Of a DNA stretch of 59,827 nt, positions 2,174-59,827 are shown in pieces. The notes beneath the pieces were generated by a model. That model was given only the letters and a program-made list of their open reading frames with translations, ran no database searches and was not told where the DNA came from. This DNA comes from a virus. Each line of letters opens with the position of its first letter. Positions within the stretch are counted from its first letter, which is position 1. The stretch lies in IMG/VR virus record IMGVR_UViG_3300042292_000091, positions 1 to 59,827 of that record; one strand, given 5' to 3'. The translations under genes were made by a program, and so were the position numbers.

Positions 2174-5100
2174 GTGGCAACGGCTGACGAGTACGCGGCG
2201 TGGATTGTACGTAACAAAGACAAAAAAGGTTCTCGGGAATTCGAGACGGTCGCTGCTGCGTACAGACAAGCGGTACAAGAAGAACAAAGACGGCAGACTG
2301 AAGAAGACAAAGGTGGTGTTGGCGCTGGGTTTATGCGCGGCCTTAAGTCGATGGCCTCAACCGTAAAAACGGCTGGTGAATCTTTAGCTGATGCAGAAAA
2401 AGCCGCGCTTGAAGCCGCCGAACGTAGCCGAATCATTTCTGAGAAGTATGGCGAAGGCCCAACTCTTGAGGCGGCTAAGAAAGCCTACGAAGAGCGCGGT
2501 GCATTAGGCGCTGCTGGCGAAGCTGTTGGAAGTATCCCCGAAGCTGTTGCTGAACAACTTCCTCAAATGGGACTTACGATAGCAGGTGCTAAAGCAGGTT
2601 CTGCTCTTGGTGCTATGGTTGGCGGTCCCGCTGCACCTGTAACTGCGTTAGTTGGCGGTATTACCGGCGCTGTCACTCCGTCCTTCATGCAGCAGTACGG
2701 CGCAAACATTCAGCGCCAAGCCGAAGAAGACATCGCCGCAGGTCGTGATGTTGATATCTCCCGCACAGCCGCCGCTGCCGCCGCTGTACCACAAGCTGCG
2801 CTCGACGTAGCAAGCCAAGCTTTAATTCTTGGTCGCGTCCTCCGCAAAAAACTTTTTGGTGAAGCGGGTAAGAAGATTGATGAACTCTTAGCCGAAGGCA
2901 CTGAAGAGTCTGCTAAGAAGGCAGAGAAACTAGCACGAGAAGGTCTTGCTAAAACTGTAGCCAAAGGCACCGCCGTAGGTGTAGCTGCTGAAGTTCCGTT
3001 TGAAGTTGTTCAACAAGCACTTGAACGTGCTCAAGCCGGTCTATCAGTTGCCGATAACGACGCTGTACAAGAGTATCTTGAGGTTGGATACCGTACTAGC
3101 CTTATGGCTCCGCTTGGTGGCGTGGGTCGAGTCGTTGATAGAGCCGCTGCACGAACGCAAGTTGCTCGGGCTGAACCTGCCGGTGACTTAACGCAGGAAA
3201 CTCAAGAAGAAGCCGACGCAATAAAGAAGGAAGAAGAGGAAGCGGCTAAGACTCCTCCGCCTCCGTTGCCGTCGTCGATTGACGATGCGCCCCCTGCTTT
3301 GCGCGGTGAATTACGTAGCATAAGCACGCCTAAAGAAGCTGCTGAAACTCTGCGAAATGCGGAGATGTATCTTGCTAACTTGTCAGAAAGCCTTGCTGAT
3401 CCAGAAGGCATGGAGAGAGACGCCCGTTTAATGGGCGTTGAACCGCTTGATGCTGAGCAAAGACTCATGGCTCGCGCCGAAGCTTTGCAAGAAGCCATTC
3501 CGTTCTATCGTCTAAGACTTCAAGAACTGTCGGGTACACCGACAGTTACGACTCCGGCTACACCGGTCGCACCGATTCCGCAAACTGCGGATGCTCAGCA
3601 GCAGTTAATTGAAACGCCAGCCGCCACAGTGACGGCTACGCAACCTACGGTTCAGGTTGATAAGGCTCTGGCTGAAGCAATTAACGTCCCCGGTGCAGAG
3701 ACCCTACCGAAAGGCCAGCCGGTTACGTTAACAACGCCGACCGCTGCGGTTGCTCCAATCCCGCAAACTGCGGGTGCTCAAGCGGCCCTGCCTATCGAAC
3801 CCACTGATGTTGAAGACCCTATTTACCGACAGGCTGTAGATGCGGTTCTTCAGAGTGGTGTGCCTAGTGTCGCTACCATTCAACGCGCCCTTAACGTCAA
3901 TTTGGCGAAGGCGACTGAACTTCTTAGACGTATGGAGCTTGAAGGTGTCGTTACGGCTCCGAAGAATGGCAAGCGTACAATCACGATGGGGCAACGTCAG
4001 GAGGCTCCCAGTGCAACCGTTGAAACAACATCAAGACCTGTTGAGCCAACTGTCGCTGGAGCAGTTGGAAGAAGCGCTGAACTGCCTTTACCGGGACCAG
4101 AACCCACTAGACCAGAAGTTGCAGGAGTTGCAAGTGAGGGATTGGGGACTGCTCCACGAACTGCTGTTGATGTTGCTGAAAGAGAAGGACGGGTCGAGCC
4201 TCCATTAGGCGATATCAGCACTGTAACTACCACACAAGAACAGCCATCAATTAGTTCACTGCCCCCGCGCCGTCGTGGTGTAGTGCCGCCGTCTCCTGTC
4301 ATGGCACGACAGGATGTTGAGCAAGCCGCGTCTGAGTCAATTCAAGGCTGGACCAACGCACCGGAAGTTGTTGTTCTTGATAACGAGAACGACACACGCA
4401 TTCCTAAAGGTGTGAAGGTAAACCCTGACGACAAAGGTTTTTACCATGAAGGTAAGACCTACGTTATTGCCAGCCGCGCCACTGACAAAGCCGATGTTCA
4501 CGCCACCGTTCTGCATGAAAGTTTTGGGCATTTCGGGTTGCGGCAGAAGTTCCGTACCCGACTCAACGACATCCTGAACGACATCTACGACACCAACCCA
4601 GCTACTCGCGCTGCGGCGGATGCGATCAAAACCCCCGGCATGAGCAATGCACAGGCAGTGGAAGAAGTTCTTGCTTCCAAGGCTGAAGCCGGTCCAATTA
4701 AAGAAGCCGGTATTCGTGCTGCGTTTAACCGTGTGGCTGCGTTTATTCGCCGCGCTGCTAGAGCGATGGGCATCAAGTTTGCCTACTCTAACAATGACGT
4801 TGCACAGGTCATGCGACTGGCGCAGGAGAAAGTTACGACCGGCAAACGTGAAGTTGTCGGTCTCAAATCTGTCGCTGCTGCAAAAAGAAAAGAACGTAAT
4901 TTACTTAACTCTTCGGCTCAGAAACTTCAAGACCTTAAAATAATGTCGCCTGAGCTTGCGGAAACAGCTTTGGCATTTGCAGAAGGGCTTAGCGACAAGT
5001 TACGTCCCGCCTATTTGCAACTCCGCACCATGCGGGAATTGGAAGACATCTTTGGCAAAATCGTTCCTGCTATTAGGGGGCTTACCCGAGTCGCCACTGA

Positions 5101-7714
5101 ACGTGCTGTGAAATTGCGCGAAATGCGCGGTGATATTAATAACAATGTTACTAAATGGAATGACGTACTGTCAGATAAAAAATATAAAGGCGTAATTCAA
5201 AAGTTTTACAGAATTGCGCTTGAGTCTACTGAAACGCAGACCGATTTCCGTAGGACTATTAAACTCAAGAACGGCACGGTTGTTCCTAACAAGGATTACA
5301 ATTCTTTAGACAAACTTACCGCAGAGTTTGAGAGTCTTCCGCAGCCTCTTAAAGATGTTTACTTCGATATGCTTGACGCTTACCGGCAGATGTCTGATCG
5401 GTACATTGAGCTTATTACGAAGAACCTGCCCCCCACGGCAGCTAATTTGATTCGTAAAGAAATTGAATCCCGCAGAATTAAAATTTATTTGCCGCTATAT
5501 CGTGACGGCGATTATTGGATTCGCTATCAAGATAGAAATGGTGAAACTGTTGTTGAGTCTTTTACAAGCAGAAAAGCGCGGCTGTTCGCTATCCGTGACT
5601 TAGTAAAAGCGGGTATTAACCGAAGTAGTATTCAACAGTATTCCAAGATTGAAGACGCCTTTGAAGCGCCGGGTATGGGCAGCTTTGGGTTCTTCGGTAA
5701 GGTAAACGAAGAGATAGATAAGTATTACAAAGATCAGTTCGGTCCTAGAGCGCAAATCCCTGCCGAACTGAAGCAGACTTTGTATAAGTTGTTTTTGGAC
5801 ACTATTCCTGCTTCGTCCGTACGGCAGCAGTTCCGTAAGCGTGAGGGTTATAAAGGCGCTAAGAAAGACCTTCTTAACGTCTATGCCATCGTCGCTTCTC
5901 GCATGGCGAACCAACTGACTAACCTTGAATATGCGCCGCAAATTGACGAAGCCACGAAGTTAGTCGAGGAAGACGTAGCCAAAGACGGCTCAATGACGGC
6001 GTTGCAACTTGGCAACGAATTAAAAGTACGGCTTAACTTTTTGCGTGATCCGTCTAATAGCAGTTTGGTTAACCGTTTTGTGTTCATGAGCTACGCAGAT
6101 TTTATCTTGGGCAATATGTCCTCTGCCGTAGCCAACACTACTAACTTGCCGATGATTGTTTATCCGATGCTTGGCGGCGAGTACGGCTACGGTAAAGCCA
6201 AGACTGCAATGGAAGATGCAATTGCCATGTACTTCCAAGGCGGTTGGGACGACGATGGTAAAGCAGGAAAACCGAGGAAATTTCCAGAGGCCGACCGTAC
6301 TGCGTTTGACCCGGCTTCTATTCCGCCCAATTCTCCGTTGGGACGATTGTTTGAAGAGGCTGTTAAGCAGGGTGCTATCAAGCACTCGGTTGGCTACGAC
6401 ATTATGGAGGCTCGTGACCGGGGAGCCACGCTCAGCGATTACTCTGGAATGCTTAACTACACTAAGCAGTTCTTGGGCTGGACGTTCCAAAACACAGAGC
6501 GTTTTAACCGCGAAGTGACTCTTATCGCGGCGTTCCGATTGGAGATGGAGAAGAAAAGAGCGCAGGGTCTTACGGGACGGGCTGTTGAAAAAGAAGCCAT
6601 TAACAAAGCTATTCGCCTTGCAGATGAAGCCAACGGTGAAACGCTAACTGAGCTTAGCCCGCGCATATTCCAGACTGGGGTATTAAAGGTTGCCCTCACG
6701 TTTAAACGCTTTGCTAGGGCCATGTATGCACTTCAGGTGCGACTGCTACGCGATGCTCTTGAGGGGTCAAAAACTGATACGACGGGGATGAGTCCACAAG
6801 AGAAAGCCGAGGCAGAGGCTGCTGACCGTGAGTTTAGAAAGGTTGCTATTAAGCAATGGGTGGGTACTGTTGGCGGTGCGTTTACGTTTGCGGGTATTCA
6901 GGGATTGCCGTTTTATGGTTTAGCCACTGGGTTGTCTGCGATGGCAAGTGCTGTATCGGCTGCGATGTTTGGTGAAGCAGATGATGAAATCACTGACGCA
7001 GAAGAAGACCTGAAGCAAGACGTTGGACTTGGGGCATTTAGGGGTCCGGTCAACCAGATTTTTGGTATCGACATGGCGGCTCGTACTGGCTTTAACGGTA
7101 TGTTTTGGCGCGATGACCCACGCCGTTTAGATGAAATTGGATTGGAACTGTTTGCGATTGAACAGTTTTTAGGCCCTGCGTACGCCTCTATTCGTTCTCG
7201 TACCGAAGCAGTAAAAGAATGGTATGAAGATGGGTATTCTGATCGCGTGCTTGAAAAGCTGTTGCCGATTGCTGCTAGAAACTTTGCTAAAGCGTGGCGT
7301 TACTACAGTGATGGTGTATTGACTAGAGACGGCAAACAAATCACTGAAGACCTTGATGCCTACGAAATTTTCATGCAAGCGTTTGGATTTACGCCGACGC
7401 AGGTATCGGAAGCAACGGCTCGTGCTGGCGCTAGAAAAGAAATTGTTGATAGCGTTATTGAACGCCGACAGGCGTTGTTTAAGGATGCTTATTCTGCATG
7501 GTCACAAGGCGACCAAGAAGGCTACGAAGAAGCTTTGCAAGATATTAGTAAGTGGAACAAAACTAAAACTGCCGCTGAATTTGACGCTAAAATTAATTGG
7601 GACGAACTTGAACAGTCGTTCCGTCAGCGCAGTAAGGCTGCTGAAGAAGCCGTTGATGGTATTTCAATACCAAAACGATACCGTGAAGGTGCTATCAATC
7701 GGGTAAAAGAGTAA
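2174..7714 (+). CDS. Giant polyvalent-type internal virion protein with FtsK-gamma-like and HExxGH domains
   Basis: The protein has 1846 residues and a GTG start after GGGGGT, 2 nt past the upstream gene. Residues of about 120-170 are Ala/Gly-rich and hydrophobic. Residues 548-606 (DPIYRQAV ... MELEGVVTAP) match the winged-helix gamma domain of FtsK/SpoIIIE. At 781-786 is HESFGH followed by FGLR, the HExxGH(F/Y)GLR signature of peptidase-like domains in phage and plasmid polyvalent proteins. A long helical region follows, and a hydrophobic stretch near 1562-1600 could cross a membrane. Proteins of this class are thought to be packaged and delivered with the DNA, so an ejection-protein role is inferred. 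The C-terminus converges on the minus-strand genes with no gap. Confidence 0.85.
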   Translation: MATADEYAAWIVRNKDKKGSREFETVAAAYRQAVQEEQRRQTEEDKGGVGAGFMRGLKSMASTVKTAGESLADAEKAALEAAERSRIISEKYGEGPTLEAAKKAYEERGALGAAGEAVGSIPEAVAEQLPQMGLTIAGAKAGSALGAMVGGPAAPVTALVGGITGAVTPSFMQQYGANIQRQAEEDIAAGRDVDISRTAAAAAAVPQAALDVASQALILGRVLRKKLFGEAGKKIDELLAEGTEESAKKAEKLAREGLAKTVAKGTAVGVAAEVPFEVVQQALERAQAGLSVADNDAVQEYLEVGYRTSLMAPLGGVGRVVDRAAARTQVARAEPAGDLTQETQEEADAIKKEEEEAAKTPPPPLPSSIDDAPPALRGELRSISTPKEAAETLRNAEMYLANLSESLADPEGMERDARLMGVEPLDAEQRLMARAEALQEAIPFYRLRLQELSGTPTVTTPATPVAPIPQTADAQQQLIETPAATVTATQPTVQVDKALAEAINVPGAETLPKGQPVTLTTPTAAVAPIPQTAGAQAALPIEPTDVEDPIYRQAVDAVLQSGVPSVATIQRALNVNLAKATELLRRMELEGVVTAPKNGKRTITMGQRQEAPSATVETTSRPVEPTVAGAVGRSAELPLPGPEPTRPEVAGVASEGLGTAPRTAVDVAEREGRVEPPLGDISTVTTTQEQPSISSLPPRRRGVVPPSPVMARQDVEQAASESIQGWTNAPEVVVLDNENDTRIPKGVKVNPDDKGFYHEGKTYVIASRATDKADVHATVLHESFGHFGLRQKFRTRLNDILNDIYDTNPATRAAADAIKTPGMSNAQAVEEVLASKAEAGPIKEAGIRAAFNRVAAFIRRAARAMGIKFAYSNNDVAQVMRLAQEKVTTGKREVVGLKSVAAAKRKERNLLNSSAQKLQDLKIMSPELAETALAFAEGLSDKLRPAYLQLRTMRELEDIFGKIVPAIRGLTRVATERAVKLREMRGDINNNVTKWNDVLSDKKYKGVIQKFYRIALESTETQTDFRRTIKLKNGTVVPNKDYNSLDKLTAEFESLPQPLKDVYFDMLDAYRQMSDRYIELITKNLPPTAANLIRKEIESRRIKIYLPLYRDGDYWIRYQDRNGETVVESFTSRKARLFAIRDLVKAGINRSSIQQYSKIEDAFEAPGMGSFGFFGKVNEEIDKYYKDQFGPRAQIPAELKQTLYKLFLDTIPASSVRQQFRKREGYKGAKKDLLNVYAIVASRMANQLTNLEYAPQIDEATKLVEEDVAKDGSMTALQLGNELKVRLNFLRDPSNSSLVNRFVFMSYADFILGNMSSAVANTTNLPMIVYPMLGGEYGYGKAKTAMEDAIAMYFQGGWDDDGKAGKPRKFPEADRTAFDPASIPPNSPLGRLFEEAVKQGAIKHSVGYDIMEARDRGATLSDYSGMLNYTKQFLGWTFQNTERFNREVTLIAAFRLEMEKKRAQGLTGRAVEKEAINKAIRLADEANGETLTELSPRIFQTGVLKVALTFKRFARAMYALQVRLLRDALEGSKTDTTGMSPQEKAEAEAADREFRKVAIKQWVGTVGGAFTFAGIQGLPFYGLATGLSAMASAVSAAMFGEADDEITDAEEDLKQDVGLGAFRGPVNQIFGIDMAARTGFNGMFWRDDPRRLDEIGLELFAIEQFLGPAYASIRSRTEAVKEWYEDGYSDRVLEKLLPIAARNFAKAWRYYSDGVLTRDGKQITEDLDAYEIFMQAFGFTPTQVSEATARAGARKEIVDSVIERRQALFKDAYSAWSQGDQEGYEEALQDISKWNKTKTAAEFDAKINWDELEQSFRQRSKAAEEAVDGISIPKRYREGAINRVKE

Positions 7715-23944: not shown

Positions 23945-24154
23945 AAACCTTACCAAACCAGACCGTGCCCCGCCTTACCCGACCATGCCCGACCCCACCA
24001 CGCCACGCCGTACCCCACCTTGCCAGACCTAGCCTAACCCGACCATGCCTCGCTACGCCGTACCAAACCTCACCAAACCCGACCAGACCCTACCCGACCC
24101 GACCTGACCCTACCAAACCCCGCCGCGCCGCGCCTTGCCGGACCTGACCCGACC
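23945..24154 (-). repeat. Degenerate pentamer array 1: 42 units NNRCC (GGYNN on minus)
   Basis: 42 contiguous 5-bp units in strict phase. Position 3 is A or G in all 42 (28 A, 14 G), positions 4-5 are CC in 41 (one CT), and positions 1-2 use nearly every dinucleotide. On the transcribed minus strand this is (GGYNN)42. It ends in GGTTTTTATT next to the GAGGTAGC ribosome-binding site of the 23928 gene. It has no consistent coding frame. Confidence 0.95.
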
Positions 24155-24183
24155 ACAAATAAAAATTTCTTGCCAGAGAAACC
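24155..24183 (-). repeat. Hairpin module copy 1
   Basis: AAATAAAAATTTCTTGCCAG followed by AGAAACC. Six-base arms TTTCTT/GAGAAA (one G-T type pair) around GCCA; on minus the stem is followed by TTTTTATTT, terminator-like but AT-rich. Near-identical to two other copies. Confidence 0.85.
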
Positions 24184-24238
24184 AAACCCTACCAAGCCCC
24201 ACCTTACCGCGCCCGACCCCGCCCCGCAGGACCACACC
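24179..24238 (-). repeat. Degenerate pentamer array 2: 12 units NNRCC
   Basis: Twelve in-phase units. Position 3 is purine in all 12 (8 A, 4 G) and positions 4-5 are CC in 11 (one CA). Flanked by hairpin modules 1 and 2; the first unit (AAACC) is the end of module 1. Confidence 0.93.
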
Positions 24239-24266
24239 AGATAAAAAATTTCTCGCCAGAGAAACC
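24239..24266 (-). repeat. Hairpin module copy 2
   Basis: AGATAAAAAATTTCTCGCCA followed by GAGAAACC. Perfect 6-bp arms TTTCTC/GAGAAA with a GCCA loop and, on minus, a T-rich tail. Confidence 0.85.
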
Positions 24267-24356
24267 AAACCGAACCTCACCGCGCCCCACCATGCCCCAC
24301 CTAACCTCACCACACCCGACCGAGCCACGCCGAGCCTGACCGCGCCACGCCTCATC
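24262..24356 (-). repeat. Degenerate pentamer array 3: 18 units NNRCC plus TCATC
   Basis: Eighteen in-phase units, all with purine at position 3 (11 A, 7 G) and CC at 4-5, then a one-base variant TCATC that leads into hairpin module 3. Confidence 0.93.
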
Positions 24357-24383
24357 AAATAAAAATTTCTCGCCAGAGAAACC
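24357..24383 (-). repeat. Hairpin module copy 3
   Basis: AAATAAAAATTTCTCGCCAG followed by AGAAACC. Same perfect TTTCTC/GAGAAA stem with GCCA loop as copy 2; copy 1 differs by one base that keeps pairing as a wobble. Confidence 0.85.
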
Positions 24384-24533
24384 GTACCCTACCGAGCCAT
24401 ACCCTACCCGACACGACCTAGCCACGCCGCGCCATACCGTGCCTGACCAAACCTGACCTCACCAAACCCGACCTCACCGGGGCGCACCGTGCCAGACCCT
24501 ACCCAACCTCGCCAGACCGCGCCAGACCTGATC
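24379..24533 (-). repeat. Degenerate pentamer array 4: 30 units NNRCC plus TGATC
   Basis: Thirty in-phase units, purine at position 3 in all 30 (21 A, 9 G), CC at 4-5 in 28 (exceptions CGACA and GGGGC). The terminal unit TGATC runs into the stop of the 24539-25114 gene. This is the first array met by minus-strand transcription. Confidence 0.93.
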
Positions 24534-24538
24534 TCAAA

Positions 24539-25114
24539 TTAAACTTCCTTAAAACTCGTCACTCTAAAAGTCCCAAAGGGACCACGTTTCTCTGGCCTAA
24601 AATCACCGATACCCATGCTCTCACCCGCTTCATTCAGCAGACGATGTGCGTCCTCAGACGAGAGCATTTGATCATTCAGAATTAAACGGAACTTCGCGCC
24701 CCATTTATCGAATCGGGGGCGATAACGCATCACCCGACCCTTGGTTGCAGGGATCGTGACCGGACGGCCATCAACCTCAAAGTTCCCTGCCGGTTTACCG
24801 TCTTCACCCAAGATGGTGATGGTGTCTGTGTCAATACGCACAGCAGACGGAACAACAAATTTTAGAGTCTTACGCGAACCGCGCATTTTGTGGTTCACGC
24901 CCGCGTTCGCCATCGTTGCAGGGATAGAGAAAGCATTAAAGTAGTATGTTCCATCCTGCGCGATGTAAGCATTCTTCGTCGCCTCGTCTCGCGGATTCAT
25001 ACTATCGACCATCACACGACGGGTCGCCTTGCCTTGCTCTGCCTGTTCCGCAAACTTGTGGATCAAGAGCGGAGTGTTACCACGGATTTCAACTTCAATC
25101 GTCTTCATGTTCAT
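24539..25114 (-). CDS. Conserved phage protein of unknown function (GIGDFRPEKRGPFG)
   Basis: 191 residues with GAGGTAA before the ATG. Features: IEVEIRGNTPLLIHKF at the N-terminus, DGTYYFNAFSIPATMANAGVNHK, a strand-rich centre with FEVDGRPVTIPATKGRVMRYRPRFDKWGAKFRLIL, and ESMGIGDFRPEKRGPFGTFRVTSF at the C-terminus. I recognise this as a recurrent phage family but know no function. It lies directly upstream of the pentamer array on the same strand. Confidence 0.75.
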   Translation of the reverse strand: MNMKTIEVEIRGNTPLLIHKFAEQAEQGKATRRVMVDSMNPRDEATKNAYIAQDGTYYFNAFSIPATMANAGVNHKMRGSRKTLKFVVPSAVRIDTDTITILGEDGKPAGNFEVDGRPVTIPATKGRVMRYRPRFDKWGAKFRLILNDQMLSSEDAHRLLNEAGESMGIGDFRPEKRGPFGTFRVTSFKEV

Positions 25115-25123
25115 TACCTCTGT

Positions 25124-25519
25124 TTAAGCGCGTTCGCGGATTGCGATTTCGCGTGTCAAATAAAACTGTGCTTTCTTCAAGTCCTCGACCGGATCGGCTC
25201 CGACCTTCTTACCGGCGCGGCTCACATACTTCACCACGTTAAAAAGGTAAGCGTTCTCAGTCAGACCTTTTGCTTCTGCGTAGTCTAGAAAGTCTACGCC
25301 CCCGACTGTGTAGTGCGGCGGCTTGTTCACAAGATCAGGCTTGTTTTCTAGTACGTTGAGTGCGGCCTTTGTTTCTCGCACCGCCTCCATAATCTTTGAT
25401 GACTTATTCTTCGACCGCACGGTATACACGTACTGCGGCTTTACCTTTGCGATCTTTGCTATTTCCTTGACCGACTTCCCCGACTGCAACAACTTTAAAA
25501 TCTGCCTTGACTTCGACAT
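25124..25519 (-). CDS. HTH + DUF3310 protein
   Basis: 131 residues. Residues 1-40 (ILKLLQSGKSVKEIAKIAKVKPQYVYTVRSK) form a helix-turn-helix. Residues of about 64-127 (VNKPPHYTVGGVDFLDYAEAKGLTENAYLFNVVKYVSRAGKK...EDLKKAQFYL) are a clear DUF3310 domain, also found in T7 gp1.7, which acts in nucleotide metabolism. The HTH-coding part overlaps the VRR-NUC gene by 116 nt in another frame. Confidence 0.88.
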   Translation of the reverse strand: MSKSRQILKLLQSGKSVKEIAKIAKVKPQYVYTVRSKNKSSKIMEAVRETKAALNVLENKPDLVNKPPHYTVGGVDFLDYAEAKGLTENAYLFNVVKYVSRAGKKVGADPVEDLKKAQFYLTREIAIRERA

Positions 25520-25799
25520 AACTTAATATCTCCTTGCGTAGGTTCTCTACGTTTGTCTCATCTATCACTACTGCGATGCCACCGGCTTTACGTATGTCAT
25601 CGTGATGCTTCAGTTGAAGCGCGGTGGGCTTTCCACCGTTTGCTTTACACTCTATACCATAAAACAACCCGGCGATACAAATAATAAAATCGGGTGCGCC
25701 AGAAGAAGAGAAGCCAGTTCCTATCGGCATCGTGTAGTACGCGCCGAGTTCATTGAGAATCTCCTTCACTCGTTTCTTTACTCGTCCTTCCGGTGTCAT
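25404..25799 (-). CDS. VRR-NUC domain nuclease
   Basis: 131 residues. The N-terminal 90 residues form a VRR-NUC PD-(D/E)XK fold: TPEGRVKKRVKEILNELGAYYTMPIG, GAPDFIICIAGLFYGIECKANGGKPTALQ (PD...ECK catalytic set) and a C-terminal helix. VRR-NUC proteins are Holliday-junction or flap nucleases. The last ~38 residues overlap the start of the DUF3310 gene out of phase. A palindrome lies just upstream of its start. Confidence 0.88.
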   Translation of the reverse strand: MTPEGRVKKRVKEILNELGAYYTMPIGTGFSSSGAPDFIICIAGLFYGIECKANGGKPTALQLKHHDDIRKAGGIAVVIDETNVENLRKEILSYVEVKADFKVVAVGEVGQGNSKDRKGKAAVRVYRAVEE

Positions 25800-35311: not shown

Positions 35312-36820
35312 GTGCAATTAACCCCACAAAATCTGCAAAAACTAAAGTTGGCCCTGCCAACCATGCCCGATAAAGAGAAACGGCGTGTCGCAGAGCTATT
35401 AAAGACGTATCAAAGCCAACTAACGCAGGCAAAGGGGAAGGATTCTTTTCTCGATTTCATTAATCACGTGTACCCCGGCTATAAAGTTGGGCCGCATCAC
35501 CGCAAATTAGCGAAGATTTTTGAAGATATTGCCGAAGGCAAGAAGAAACGGGTGATCGTGAATATCGCCCCGCGTCACGGCAAGTCGGAGATGATCAGTT
35601 ACCTCGCTCCGGCGTGGTTTCTAGGCAAATTTCCGCATAAAAAAGTGATTATGGCCTCACACACCGCAGATTTGGCGGTGAACTTCGGTCGCAGAGTTAG
35701 AAACCTCGTAGGCTCGGAGCTTTACCGTGACATCTTCTCCAACGTCGAGCTTCAAGCAGATAGTAAGAGTGCTTCTCGTTGGGGTACGAACTTTAATGGC
35801 GAGTATTTTGCTATTGGCGTTGGTGGTGCCTTGGCTGGTCGGGGTGCTGATCTATTCATTATTGATGATCCTCATTCTGAACAAGACGCCAAGCAAGGCC
35901 GATCTGATGTATTTGATCCCGCTTGGGAATGGTTTCAATCAGGACCGGTCCAGCGACTAATGCCGGGTGGCGCGATCATCGTGGTGATGACGCGGTGGAG
36001 TAAGCAGGACCTGACCGGCAAGATTGTCGAGCACATGACCAAGGAAGACGGGGCGGATGAGTGGGAGTTGGTCGAGTTCCCTGCCATCCTGAACGATAAA
36101 CCGCTCTGGCCTGAGTTCTGGACGATTGAGGAGTTGCTGGCAAAGAAAGCCAGCATGGACATCCGGTACTGGCAAGCCCAGTACATGCAGGAGCCGACAT
36201 CCGAAGAGGGTGCGCTCATCAAACGAGAGTGGTGGCAGGTTTGGGATAGAGATAATCCCCCGTCTTGCGAACACATCATTATGTCGCTTGACGCTGCCCA
36301 AGAGAAAACGAACCGGTCGGACTTTAATGCCTTATTAACGTGGGGGGTTTTCAAAAATGAGGAAACCCAGAATTACAACATTATCTTGTTGAACGCGATT
36401 AAGGAGCGGCTGGAGTTCCCGGAGCTAAAAGCGCTTGTCCTTGAGCAGTACAAAGAGTGGAACCCGGACACCTTTATCGTGGAAAAGAAATCCAACGGTG
36501 CGGCGCTGTATCAGGAGATGCGGCGCATGGGTGTCCCGATATCGGAATTTACCCCCGGTAAGGGGCAGGACAAGATTAGCCGGGTTAACTCGGTGACGGA
36601 CTTATTTTCGGCGGGTATAGTCTGGGTGCCTGACCGCAGGTGGGCGTATGAGGTAGTCGAGGAGTGCAATGACTTCCCTGCCGGTACCCACGATGACTTG
36701 GTGGACGCCACCACATTAGCCCTTCTTCGTTTTAGGCAAGGCGGCTTTATTAGGCTCCCTACGGATGAGCCAGAACCAACGAAATGGTTCAAGAGCCACA
36801 GACGCGAGTCGTATTACTAG
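35312..36820 (+). CDS. terL: Terminase large subunit
   Basis: 502 residues (GTG 35312; ATG 35363 possible). ATPase: Walker A APRHGKSE (86-93) and Walker B LFIIDDP (181-187), with motif III-like VMTRW. The RNase H-like nuclease follows: MSLDAAQEKTNRSDFNAL, VEKKSNG and HDDLVDATTLAL supply the acidic residues. This is the packaging motor. It is followed at 11 nt by the portal gene. Confidence 0.96.
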   Translation: MQLTPQNLQKLKLALPTMPDKEKRRVAELLKTYQSQLTQAKGKDSFLDFINHVYPGYKVGPHHRKLAKIFEDIAEGKKKRVIVNIAPRHGKSEMISYLAPAWFLGKFPHKKVIMASHTADLAVNFGRRVRNLVGSELYRDIFSNVELQADSKSASRWGTNFNGEYFAIGVGGALAGRGADLFIIDDPHSEQDAKQGRSDVFDPAWEWFQSGPVQRLMPGGAIIVVMTRWSKQDLTGKIVEHMTKEDGADEWELVEFPAILNDKPLWPEFWTIEELLAKKASMDIRYWQAQYMQEPTSEEGALIKREWWQVWDRDNPPSCEHIIMSLDAAQEKTNRSDFNALLTWGVFKNEETQNYNIILLNAIKERLEFPELKALVLEQYKEWNPDTFIVEKKSNGAALYQEMRRMGVPISEFTPGKGQDKISRVNSVTDLFSAGIVWVPDRRWAYEVVEECNDFPAGTHDDLVDATTLALLRFRQGGFIRLPTDEPEPTKWFKSHRRESYY

Positions 36821-51032: not shown

Positions 51033-52052
51033 ATGCCGTCTACATTTTCAACAAATTTGGCCCTTGAACTCCTCGCTACAGGCGAAGGAGCAGGTACGTG
51101 GGGTGACACCACTAATACCAACTTGGGAACCCTGCTTGAGCAGGCCATTTCTGGTTATGTCACTCAGGCCGTATCTACCGGTAATGACACGACCATCACC
51201 ATCCCGAACGGTGCGACCGGTGTCGCCCGTAATATGTACATTGAGTTGACAGGAACCGGTGGAGCCAGTACCAACCTGATCGTTCCTGCTAACAAGAAAC
51301 TCTACTTCATCTTTAACAACGCCTCTGGTGCGGTGACGGTAAAAGTTTCTGGTCAAACGGGCGTTTCGGTTCCGGCGGGAAGTAAGTTTATTCTCGTATC
51401 AAACGGTACCGATATTGTTGAGGCAACGAGTTATTCAGCGGGTGTTGGAAGTAGTCTTAACCTGACTACGCTAACGGCGACCTCGGCTAATATCACGACG
51501 CTAACTAGCACTAGCGCCAACATCACGACGCTAACTAGCACTAGCGCCAACATCACGACGCTGACTGGTACAAACTTTTCTGCCACAAGTTTGACGTTAA
51601 CCAACGCGCTGAAAATCGCGGAAGGCGGTACTGGACTTGATACCACGCCGACTAACGGCCAACTTCTGATCGGTAACGGTACTGGTTACGCTCTGTCTAC
51701 ATTGACGGCAGGTGACGGAATTTCGGTCACTAACAATGCGGGCAGTATCACAATTGCAGCGAGTGGCGGCGGTCTTCCTACCGTTACAGTCACAGCATCT
51801 ACTGCGATCACTGCGGCGGTTAATTTCCACTACGTTTTGACTGCTGCAACAACCGCCACGGTTACGCTTCCGGCCTCGCCTACCATTAGTGATACGATTT
51901 ACGTTACGGTTGCTAACGGCTTGGTCACGAATGTCGTGGCGCGTAATGGTAAAAACATTCAAGGTCTTGCCGAGGACCTGACGCTTAATGCGACTTACGC
52001 TTCGGTACAACTTAGATACTCAGACGCAACTGAAGGATGGATCTTCGCATGA
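51033..52052 (+). CDS. Tail fibre protein
   Basis: 339 residues. N-terminus ALELLATGEGAGTWGDTTNTNLGTLLEQAI is the common fibre opening in such phages; then repeats ITTLTSTSAN and KIAEGGTGLDTTPTNGQLLIGNGTGYALSTLTAG, another frequent fibre motif. Two exact 30-bp DNA repeats (51492-51551) encode the repeats. ATGA-coupled to the glycine-rich adhesin. Confidence 0.82.
   Translation: MPSTFSTNLALELLATGEGAGTWGDTTNTNLGTLLEQAISGYVTQAVSTGNDTTITIPNGATGVARNMYIELTGTGGASTNLIVPANKKLYFIFNNASGAVTVKVSGQTGVSVPAGSKFILVSNGTDIVEATSYSAGVGSSLNLTTLTATSANITTLTSTSANITTLTSTSANITTLTGTNFSATSLTLTNALKIAEGGTGLDTTPTNGQLLIGNGTGYALSTLTAGDGISVTNNAGSITIAASGGGLPTVTVTASTAITAAVNFHYVLTAATTATVTLPASPTISDTIYVTVANGLVTNVVARNGKNIQGLAEDLTLNATYASVQLRYSDATEGWIFA
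51492..51551 (+). repeat. Two exact tandem 30-bp repeats in fibre gene
   Basis: Units 51492-51521 and 51522-51551 are identical and encode ITTLTSTSAN; diverged copies flank them. Suggests recent expansion of the fibre shaft. Confidence 0.9.
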
Positions 52053-57966: not shown

Positions 57967-59827
57967 ATGAACCAATATCCTGCGGCGGGACTCGCGTCCC
58001 TTGTAGCCGCTCAAGGCCGTAACGGGGATTCCGCCCTCGTTCACATGACTCCCGAAGAGGTTCGCAGCCTCCAAGCCATCGCCCGTGCACAGGGTGTGGA
58101 ACTGCCGGTCAATCCGGTAACAGGGGTCCTTGAAGCGTCGGCCCTTAGTAGATTTTTAAGTTCTATTGGAAGGGGCATTGCTAACGTCGGTCGCACGATA
58201 ATCCAAAACCCTCAGACCACCGCATTGATTGCTGGCACCGCCTACGGCGCTATCAAGGGCGATCTACAAAAGGGTCTTGAGGCGGGCATGAAAGCCTACG
58301 CCGGGACTAAGTTGCTCGGTGGTATTACGAGCGCAGTACAGCAAGGTAGGAGAACCCCCGGTATCGCGGGTCCTGCTGGATACAGAGAGGCTTCTCGTGG
58401 AGCAGATGACTTTGGCGAAGTTGCACCGGGTTTGATGGATGTTAAGCCTACGGTTGAAGCTCCGTTAGGTAGAAGTCCTGCCAGTGGTGGCGGGCTTGAT
58501 GCGCTCTTACAACGAATACTAGGCGGCGGTCAGTCGGGTACTACGCAACAAGGGCAACCCTCGCAAGGACAACAGGGACAGCAGGGTATTTTCGGTCGAG
58601 GCACTGACCCGATCATGCAGGCGATTGCGCTTTATGCAATGAATCGTGCTGAACAAAAGGCGACGGGACAACGACCGGGTATTCCAACTCCGCAGCCTCA
58701 ACAGTACCGCAACGTCCAGTTTAATTACGGACGGGTCAATCCAAGGTTCCGTGAGCCGGGGCAACCGTACTTTATTGACGGCGGCTATACCGATCAGGGC
58801 TACACCACGCAGTTCCCTGATTACAGTAGGCCACCACCTACGGGGCAAGCGCCACAAGCGCCTAATCAACCGCCACAGACTCCTCCACGGAACCAACCTC
58901 CTCCTTACGCGCAGGATGATCGTCGCTACGGGCTGCAAATGGCTTCGGGCGGCGTCGCCTACGCGGATGGCGGAGTTTCTGAAACGGCGAGCAACTTGGA
59001 GCAAGACGAGCAAAGGAGGCGCGAAGAATACTTCCGTAACCTCCGCCCTTTCGCTCCCGCCCTGACTGATCAGTATCGCACCGATGCAACTCGCATCGGG
59101 TCAGTTCAGGGCGTTGATCCTTATAACCGCGATCCGCTTACCCGCCTGACGCAGCCCGCACCCAGAGGTGTAGGCACGGAAGGTATTGCCTCACTCCAAC
59201 CGTACGATGAATCGCTCGCTGAGTGGTATCGTTCGCTATTAGTCCCCCCGATTGGCCGTGCGCCGCTTGAGACGGGAGACTATTTCACGACTACGCCGAA
59301 GCGTGGTGCGACTAACTATGGCCCGGTAATTAATTACCCGCCCCCGCCACCTCCGCCAATAGTTGTCCCGCCGCCCCCGCCACCTCCGCCGCTCACCTGC
59401 CCAAATGGTGAGCCTTTTGACTTAATTCGTTTGGCACAGGGACTTGACCCGTGCGGCATTGGCGGCTGCGGCGCTAACGAATATTTTGACGTCAGCACGA
59501 AGCAGTGCGAGTGTATGCCCGGCACTACTCGTGGTGCCGATGGCGTTTGCGGTAAAGGACCTCCGGGACCTCCGGGACCTCCGGGACCTCCGGGACCTCC
59601 GGGACCTCCGGGACCTCCGGGACCTCCGGGGCCGCCTCAACCTCCGGGACCTCCGGGACCTCCGGGACCTCCGGGACCTCCGGGACCTCCGGGACCTCCG
59701 GGGCCGCCTCAACCTCCGGGACCTCCGGGGCCGCCTCAACCTCCGGGACCTCCGGGACCTCCGGGACCTCCGGGGCCGCCTCAACCTCCGGGACCTCCGG
59801 GACCTCCGGGACCGCCGGTGCCTCCGG
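57967..59827 (+). CDS. Collagen-like virion protein, 3' end outside window
   Basis: At least 620 residues; GGGGGG precedes the ATG. Residues 1-180: [21 protein letters not shown] and a [18 protein letters not shown] helix. The middle is Gln/Pro-rich with [12 protein letters not shown] (near 330). A Pro-rich hinge [18 protein letters not shown] leads to a Cys-rich segment ([24 protein letters not shown]). From about 530 it is pure (GPP)n broken by GPPQPP, encoded by the 9-mer GGACCTCCG, up to the end. No stop is reached. Confidence 0.85.
59557..59827 (+). repeat. Tandem 9-bp repeat encoding Gly-Pro-Pro
   Basis: Units GGACCTCCG (Gly-Pro-Pro) in tandem, interrupted by GGGCCGCCTCAACCTCCG (GPPQPP) variants. 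Near-identical units explain why the contig ends here. Confidence 0.95.

What the first reader, a model, noticed from the sequence alone, without database searches (positions are those of the whole stretch)
23945..24533. A 102-unit degenerate pentamer array, NNRCC, with strict phase and hairpin separators
The sequence shows 102 in-phase 5-bp units in four blocks (42, 12, 18, 30). Position 3 is a purine in 102/102 (68 A, 34 G by my count), positions 4-5 are CC in about 98, and positions 1-2 are essentially free. Ordinary tandem repeats copy whole units; this keeps only three of five positions, which implies selection on the pattern itself. On the transcribed strand it reads (GGYNN)n. Candidates: RNA target of a ring-like binding protein (five-nt spacing as in TRAP), tandem two-tetrad G-quadruplexes (GG every 5 nt), a DNA-protein array with half-turn period, or packaging/replication site. 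I know of no described element like this.
Basis: seen in the sequence. Interest (0 to 1): 0.95.

Follow-up and report, generated by a model that had tools for sequence, protein, structure and literature searches.

The report
Phage VIPR guide-RNA array and partner
The strange five-letter repeat is a bank of guide RNAs of a phage-encoded, CRISPR-related system called VIPR, first described in a 2026 preprint, in which a small protein reads the two free letters of each unit to find and silence competing viruses; this phage carries a new example with unusually long guide tracts.

Summary
In detail: 102 in-phase NNRCC units (GGYNN on the minus strand, the coding strand of the flanking genes) lie in tracts of 42, 12, 18 and 30, far beyond chance. 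It is not an undescribed element. The gene directly upstream (24539-25114, minus) belongs to phrog_4652, matches the solved 'SUSP1 Vipr protein' (36pp), and is predicted with high confidence to fold like the CRISPR RAMP/Cas7 subunit Csm3. GGYNN arrays next to this gene are the VIPR systems (Viral Interference Programmable Repeat) of bioRxiv 2026.04.26.720920. There, Vipr binds GGY and the NN pairs are matched to DNA with one skipped base, giving programmable repression of rival phages. I reached the protein-array pairing independently: the family is in 91 of 120 array-bearing viral loci, and its only 13 hits in 239 control-scan loci are loci that also carry degenerate arrays. In 104 of 106 loci the array is on the gene's strand. 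In 6,545 units from 104 loci, NN composition fits codon positions 1-2 best, as the published wobble-skip rule predicts. Own features: 29- and 41-unit tracts (published guides have 9-16 units), short hairpin tails after three tracts, no recognisable vap1. No target was found. Known kind, new member.

The parts
24539..25114 (-). vipr gene (191 aa, P0001; alternative start 25108): RAMP/Cas7-like guide-RNA-binding protein
   Evidence: phrog_4652 E 5.8e-23; phmmer to 36pp_D 'SUSP1 Vipr protein' 2.3e-07, family profile 5.6e-42; AF2 pLDDT 93.6; Foldseek/VIA best matches are Csm3-type Cas7, Z 12.1
24379..24528 (-). vrRNA repeat tract 1, 30 GGYNN units (last GGTTT also forms the hairpin stem; 29 without it)
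24352..24378 (-). tail/separator 1: CTCTGGCGAGAAATTTTTATTTGATGA; 8-bp hairpin with the preceding GGTTT, then U run
   Evidence: -6.5 kcal/mol, z -1.5
24262..24351 (-). vrRNA repeat tract 2, 18 units (17 before the stem)
24239..24261 (-). tail/separator 2: CTCTGGCGAGAAATTTTTTATCT, same hairpin
   Evidence: -7.1 kcal/mol, z -1.9
24179..24238 (-). vrRNA repeat tract 3, 12 units (11 before the stem)
24155..24178 (-). tail/separator 3: CTCTGGCAAGAAATTTTTATTTGT, weaker hairpin (one base differs)
   Evidence: -3.0 kcal/mol, z 0.3
23945..24154 (-). vrRNA repeat tract 4, 42 units; followed by GGTTTTTATTGAGG with no hairpin, then the next gene

Best explanation
A VIPR locus. The minus-strand operon makes Vipr (24539-25114) and, directly downstream, RNAs of tandem GGYNN units with hairpin tails (vrRNAs). 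Vipr, a minimal Cas7-like RAMP protein, is inferred to coat the RNA one subunit per 5 nt, holding GGY and presenting NN. The NN pairs are inferred to base-pair with double-stranded DNA as NNxNNxNN..., the skipped base usually at a codon wobble position, and to block transcription of a competing phage, satellite or prophage. Shown here: the array, its strand and position, the protein family and fold, the pairing of the two across many genomes, and hypervariability of NN against fixed GGY. Taken from the published work on SUSP1 and P. fulva systems: RNA binding, DNA targeting and repression. Inferred for this phage: expression, processing and targets.
For: Array confirmed. Neighbour gene is phrog_4652, as is the gene between the two array regions of Felixounavirus bumzen. 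Family found in 91/120 GGYNN-array viral loci; its 13 hits among 239 control-scan loci are all in loci with degenerate arrays. Array on the vipr strand in 104/106 loci, median distance 31 nt. Structure of a family member solved under the name SUSP1 Vipr. Predicted fold matches Csm3 with Z 12.1, rmsd 4.4 over 165 residues. Nearest relative (L078, 80% identical Vipr) has wholly different NN content but the same GGY frame. Pooled NN pairs fit codon positions 1-2 better than 2-3 by 249 bits, 3-1 by 1544 bits and base composition alone by 464 bits; 75 of 104 loci agree. Published mechanism: PMC13142463.
Against: No target found: six segments of the tracts (20-22 informative bases each) gave no exact match in IMG/VR and three decoded peptides gave none in phages. 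Tracts of 29 and 41 units exceed the published 9-16. Tail hairpins are weak, one no better than shuffles, and tract 4 has none. No vap1 homologue in the window. In the window alone the 102 NN pairs do not favour the codon 1-2 register over 2-3. No RNA data for this phage.
Confidence: 0.95

Rival explanations
1. The array RNA is a decoy or sponge: Vipr (or a host RNA-binding protein) is titrated by the GGY repeats and NN carry no information.
For: GGY is the only fixed part and some tracts are very long.
Against: NN composition follows codon positions 1-2 across 104 loci, unexpected for free filler; the published reporter and phage assays show that NN dictates the target.
Confidence: 0.03
2. 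A DNA-level element (packaging, replication or partition site) read by a DNA-binding protein at half-turn spacing.
For: 5-bp period is close to half a helical turn (sequence).
Against: Array lies on the vipr coding strand in 104/106 loci and beside that gene; partner is a RAMP protein; several arrays per genome at different places, as in bumzen.
Confidence: 0.01
3. A decayed or assembly-collapsed tandem repeat with no function.
For: Tandem repeats are often misassembled and this is a metagenomic virus record.
Against: Strict GGY with free NN cannot arise by copying; the same design is in complete genomes of isolated phages and in over a hundred other contigs.
Confidence: 0.01

Closest known systems
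VIPR systems (Vipr + vrRNA; PMC13142463, bioRxiv 2026.04.26.720920), SUSP1/Felixounavirus type
   Same: Homologous Vipr protein, GGY/NN pentamer tracts on the same strand beside it, phage genome, tail after each of three tracts
   Different: 24% identity to the Felixounavirus Vipr; tracts of 29 and 41 units against 9-16; short AT-rich hairpin instead of a pseudoknot tail; no vap1
Class 1 CRISPR effector RAMPs (Csm3/Cas7)
   Same: Predicted RAMP fold, Z about 12; RNA-coating with periodic skipped bases by analogy
   Different: No CRISPR array of contiguous spacers, one small protein only, 5-nt RNA unit with two informative bases against a 6-nt Cas7 footprint
TRAP (trp RNA-binding attenuation protein) sites
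   Same: Triplet plus two spacer bases, repeated many times in RNA (from general knowledge)
   Different: TRAP reads (G/U)AG with an 11-mer ring; here GGY, tracts up to 42 units and a RAMP protein

Membership tests
VIPR | Vipr protein: RAMP homologue of the published family | tested here: met
   phrog_4652 E 5.8e-23; 36pp_D E 2.3e-07 from P0001 alone; RAMP fold
VIPR | Noncoding tandem repeats alternating GGY and hypervariable NN beside vipr | tested here: met
   102 units starting 10 nt from vipr on its strand; NN replaced in the closest relative
VIPR | vrRNA of 9-16 units (published for the SUSP1 and P. fulva clades; other types have staggered arrays) | tested here: inconclusive
   Tracts of 29, 17, 11 and 41 units; ends of mature RNAs cannot be read from DNA. 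56 of 504 blocks (6+ units) in relatives are 17 units or longer
VIPR | Invariable structured 3' tail after each repeat tract | tested here: inconclusive
   Near-identical hairpin tail after three tracts, none after the fourth; energies near shuffles
VIPR | Accessory vap gene (typical, not universal) | tested here: inconclusive
   No vap1 by profile in the window or nine relatives, though present in 48 of 106 vipr loci; sequences of vap2-6 were not available
VIPR | Targets DNA by NN with a 1-nt skip | tested here: inconclusive
   Pooled composition supports it; no target found for this window
VIPR | Encoded by phage or provirus | tested here: met
   Virus record with terminase, portal and DNA polymerase genes
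CRISPR-Cas class 1 | CRISPR array of identical direct repeats with contiguous spacers, and several cas genes | tested here: not met
   Tandem Repeats Finder shows no such array and the neighbouring genes tested match no cas family
TRAP | (G/U)AG triplets and TRAP protein | tested here: not met
   Triplet is GG followed by C or T in 98/102 units; neighbour is a RAMP protein

The most novel reading that the evidence does not exclude
The 29- and 41-unit tracts act as single very long guides, or as staggered overlapping guides in a clade that has no vap1, so that one Vipr filament would read up to about 120 bp of target DNA; a VIPR variant not covered by the published 9-16-unit guides.
Probability: 0.3. 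Interest if true: 0.6.

Novelty: new member of a known kind. Interest (0 to 1): 0.45.

Why it matters
It places a freshly described RNA-guided system, proposed as the ancestor of CRISPR effectors, in another phage lineage (relatives of Pelagibacter, Roseobacter and Planktothrix phages by portal protein). It also gives independent support, from over 100 loci, for two published claims: the pairing of protein and array, and the reading of NN as codon positions 1-2. Long tracts and the recurrent GGANN variant are concrete questions about how Vipr reads its guide.

Tried and rejected
G-quadruplex, TRAP-like ring, rut site, tRNA 3'-end or anti-SD pairing, and packaging site were considered before the partner gene was seen and dropped once it was. 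Rfam: nothing at gathering score, and only chance-level matches below it. Target search: six segments (20-22 informative bases) of the window tracts in IMG/VR, all empty; three decoded peptides in phages, empty; 484 guides from all loci against 3.1 Mb of fetched DNA with skips 0-4 gave no excess for skip 1, but that set was too small and not expected to hold targets. A first version of that scan was swamped by simple repeats. Profile search in IMG/VR with the whole family failed for lack of a conserved stretch, so an unbiased count of vipr genes without arrays was not obtained. Tract lengths as multiples of 6: no such preference in relatives. Promoter and terminator scans of the region found nothing.

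Full report
OBSERVATION. The finding is accurate. On the minus strand the region reads as (GGYNN)n in four phased tracts of 30, 18, 12 and 42 units (in order of transcription), 102 in all. GG is kept in 98 units and a pyrimidine at position 3 in all 102, while positions 4-5 are close to random. Shuffled windows never approach these scores. The tracts are separated by 23-27 nt containing a near-identical short hairpin, TTTCTC-TGGC-GAGAAA followed by a U run; the last tract runs into the next gene without one. The array sits between same-strand genes.

RELATED ARRAYS. The control pattern YCC gave 18 of 120 and the RCC search in bacterial genomes (ten units) 13 of 120 by the same criterion, most of them weak. 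Blast of the array led to intergenic arrays in Felixounavirus phages of E. coli. The bumzen genome has four blocks of 10-11 units, all on the strand of their operon.

PARTNER GENE. Reading the sequence beside strong arrays showed one recurring gene. The window gene directly upstream of the array (24539-25114) and bumzen_43, between the two bumzen array regions, both belong to phrog_4652, annotated 'unknown function'. A profile iterated from these two finds the family in 91 of 120 array loci, many of which are cut short. It finds 9 of 119 and 4 of 120 loci in the two control scans, and all 13 have degenerate arrays. In 104 of 106 loci the array is on the vipr strand, at a median distance of 31 nt.

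IDENTITY. The family profile matches PDB 36pp, 'SUSP1 Vipr protein', at 5.6e-42, and P0001 alone at 2.3e-07. The AlphaFold model of P0001 (pLDDT 93.6) matches CRISPR Csm3/Cas7 subunits with Z up to 12.1. The preprint PMC13142463 describes exactly this: VIPR systems, a RAMP protein proposed to be older than CRISPR plus vrRNAs of alternating GGY/NN, reading DNA through NN with a one-base skip, mostly at codon wobble positions, and repressing rival phages. The window is therefore a VIPR locus.

INDEPENDENT TESTS OF THE PUBLISHED CODE. If NN are codon positions 1-2 of either strand, their frequencies should follow those positions. With each phage's own genes as proxy, 6,545 NN pairs from 104 loci prefer this register over 2-3 by 249 bits and over 3-1 by 1544 bits; 75 loci agree, 28 prefer 2-3. 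The window's own 102 pairs do not decide between the first two. The closest relative, L078 (Vipr 80% identical), has an array with the same frame and unrelated NN, as expected for guides that change with the enemy.

WHAT IS PARTICULAR HERE. The 29- and 41-unit tracts (not counting the GGTTT in the hairpin stem) exceed the published 9-16 units. Of 504 blocks of six or more units across the vipr loci, 357 are 9-16 units, 56 are 17 or longer and 19 are 29 or longer. Long tracts recur in the window's own wider clade (L093 34, L002 28, L099 32) and in another (L018 140, L116 74). The clade lacks vap1, which 48 of 106 vipr loci have. A GGANN variant with A almost always at position 3 occurs in 8 loci and needs at least 5 changes on supported branches of the Vipr tree. 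The preprint mentions 'a related consensus', so I do not claim this as new.

LIMITS. No target was found and no expression data exist for this phage. The mechanism for this locus is inferred from homologues at about 24% identity. The type within the seven published types could not be assigned. The source is a preprint.

Noticed in passing
L173, L227, L157, L183, L149, L181, L224, L235: Vipr loci whose arrays read GGANN with A almost always at position 3 (L173 has 20 guides of 5-16 units). On the Vipr tree this change needs at least 5 events.
   Followed up: partly
L125:34593-34924 and 36130-36184 (Felixounavirus bumzen): Array blocks of 10-11 units with separators that look like an H-type pseudoknot (GTAG..CTAC with TAATCG/CGATTA or GTCTCA/TGAGAC, a covarying stem by eye); agrees with the published SUSP1 tail.
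   Followed up: partly
L018, L121, L063, L116, L032, L067: A supported Vipr clade with very long unbroken tracts (up to 140 units), possibly the staggered type of the preprint.
   Followed up: no
window 59557-59827: Tandem 9-bp repeat GGACCTCCG running off the contig end, which could encode collagen-like Gly-Pro-Pro.
   Followed up: no
window 2174-7714: 1,846-aa protein with a DarB-like antirestriction match in its C-terminal part.
   Followed up: no
window 25124-25799: Upstream of vipr: a DUF3310 protein with a possible HTH, and a small phage endonuclease-like gene (phrog_93), overlapping by 116 bp; candidates for an accessory gene but not conserved beside vipr in relatives.
   Followed up: partly
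window 51492-51566: 30-bp unit repeated 2.5 times at 97% matches.
   Followed up: no
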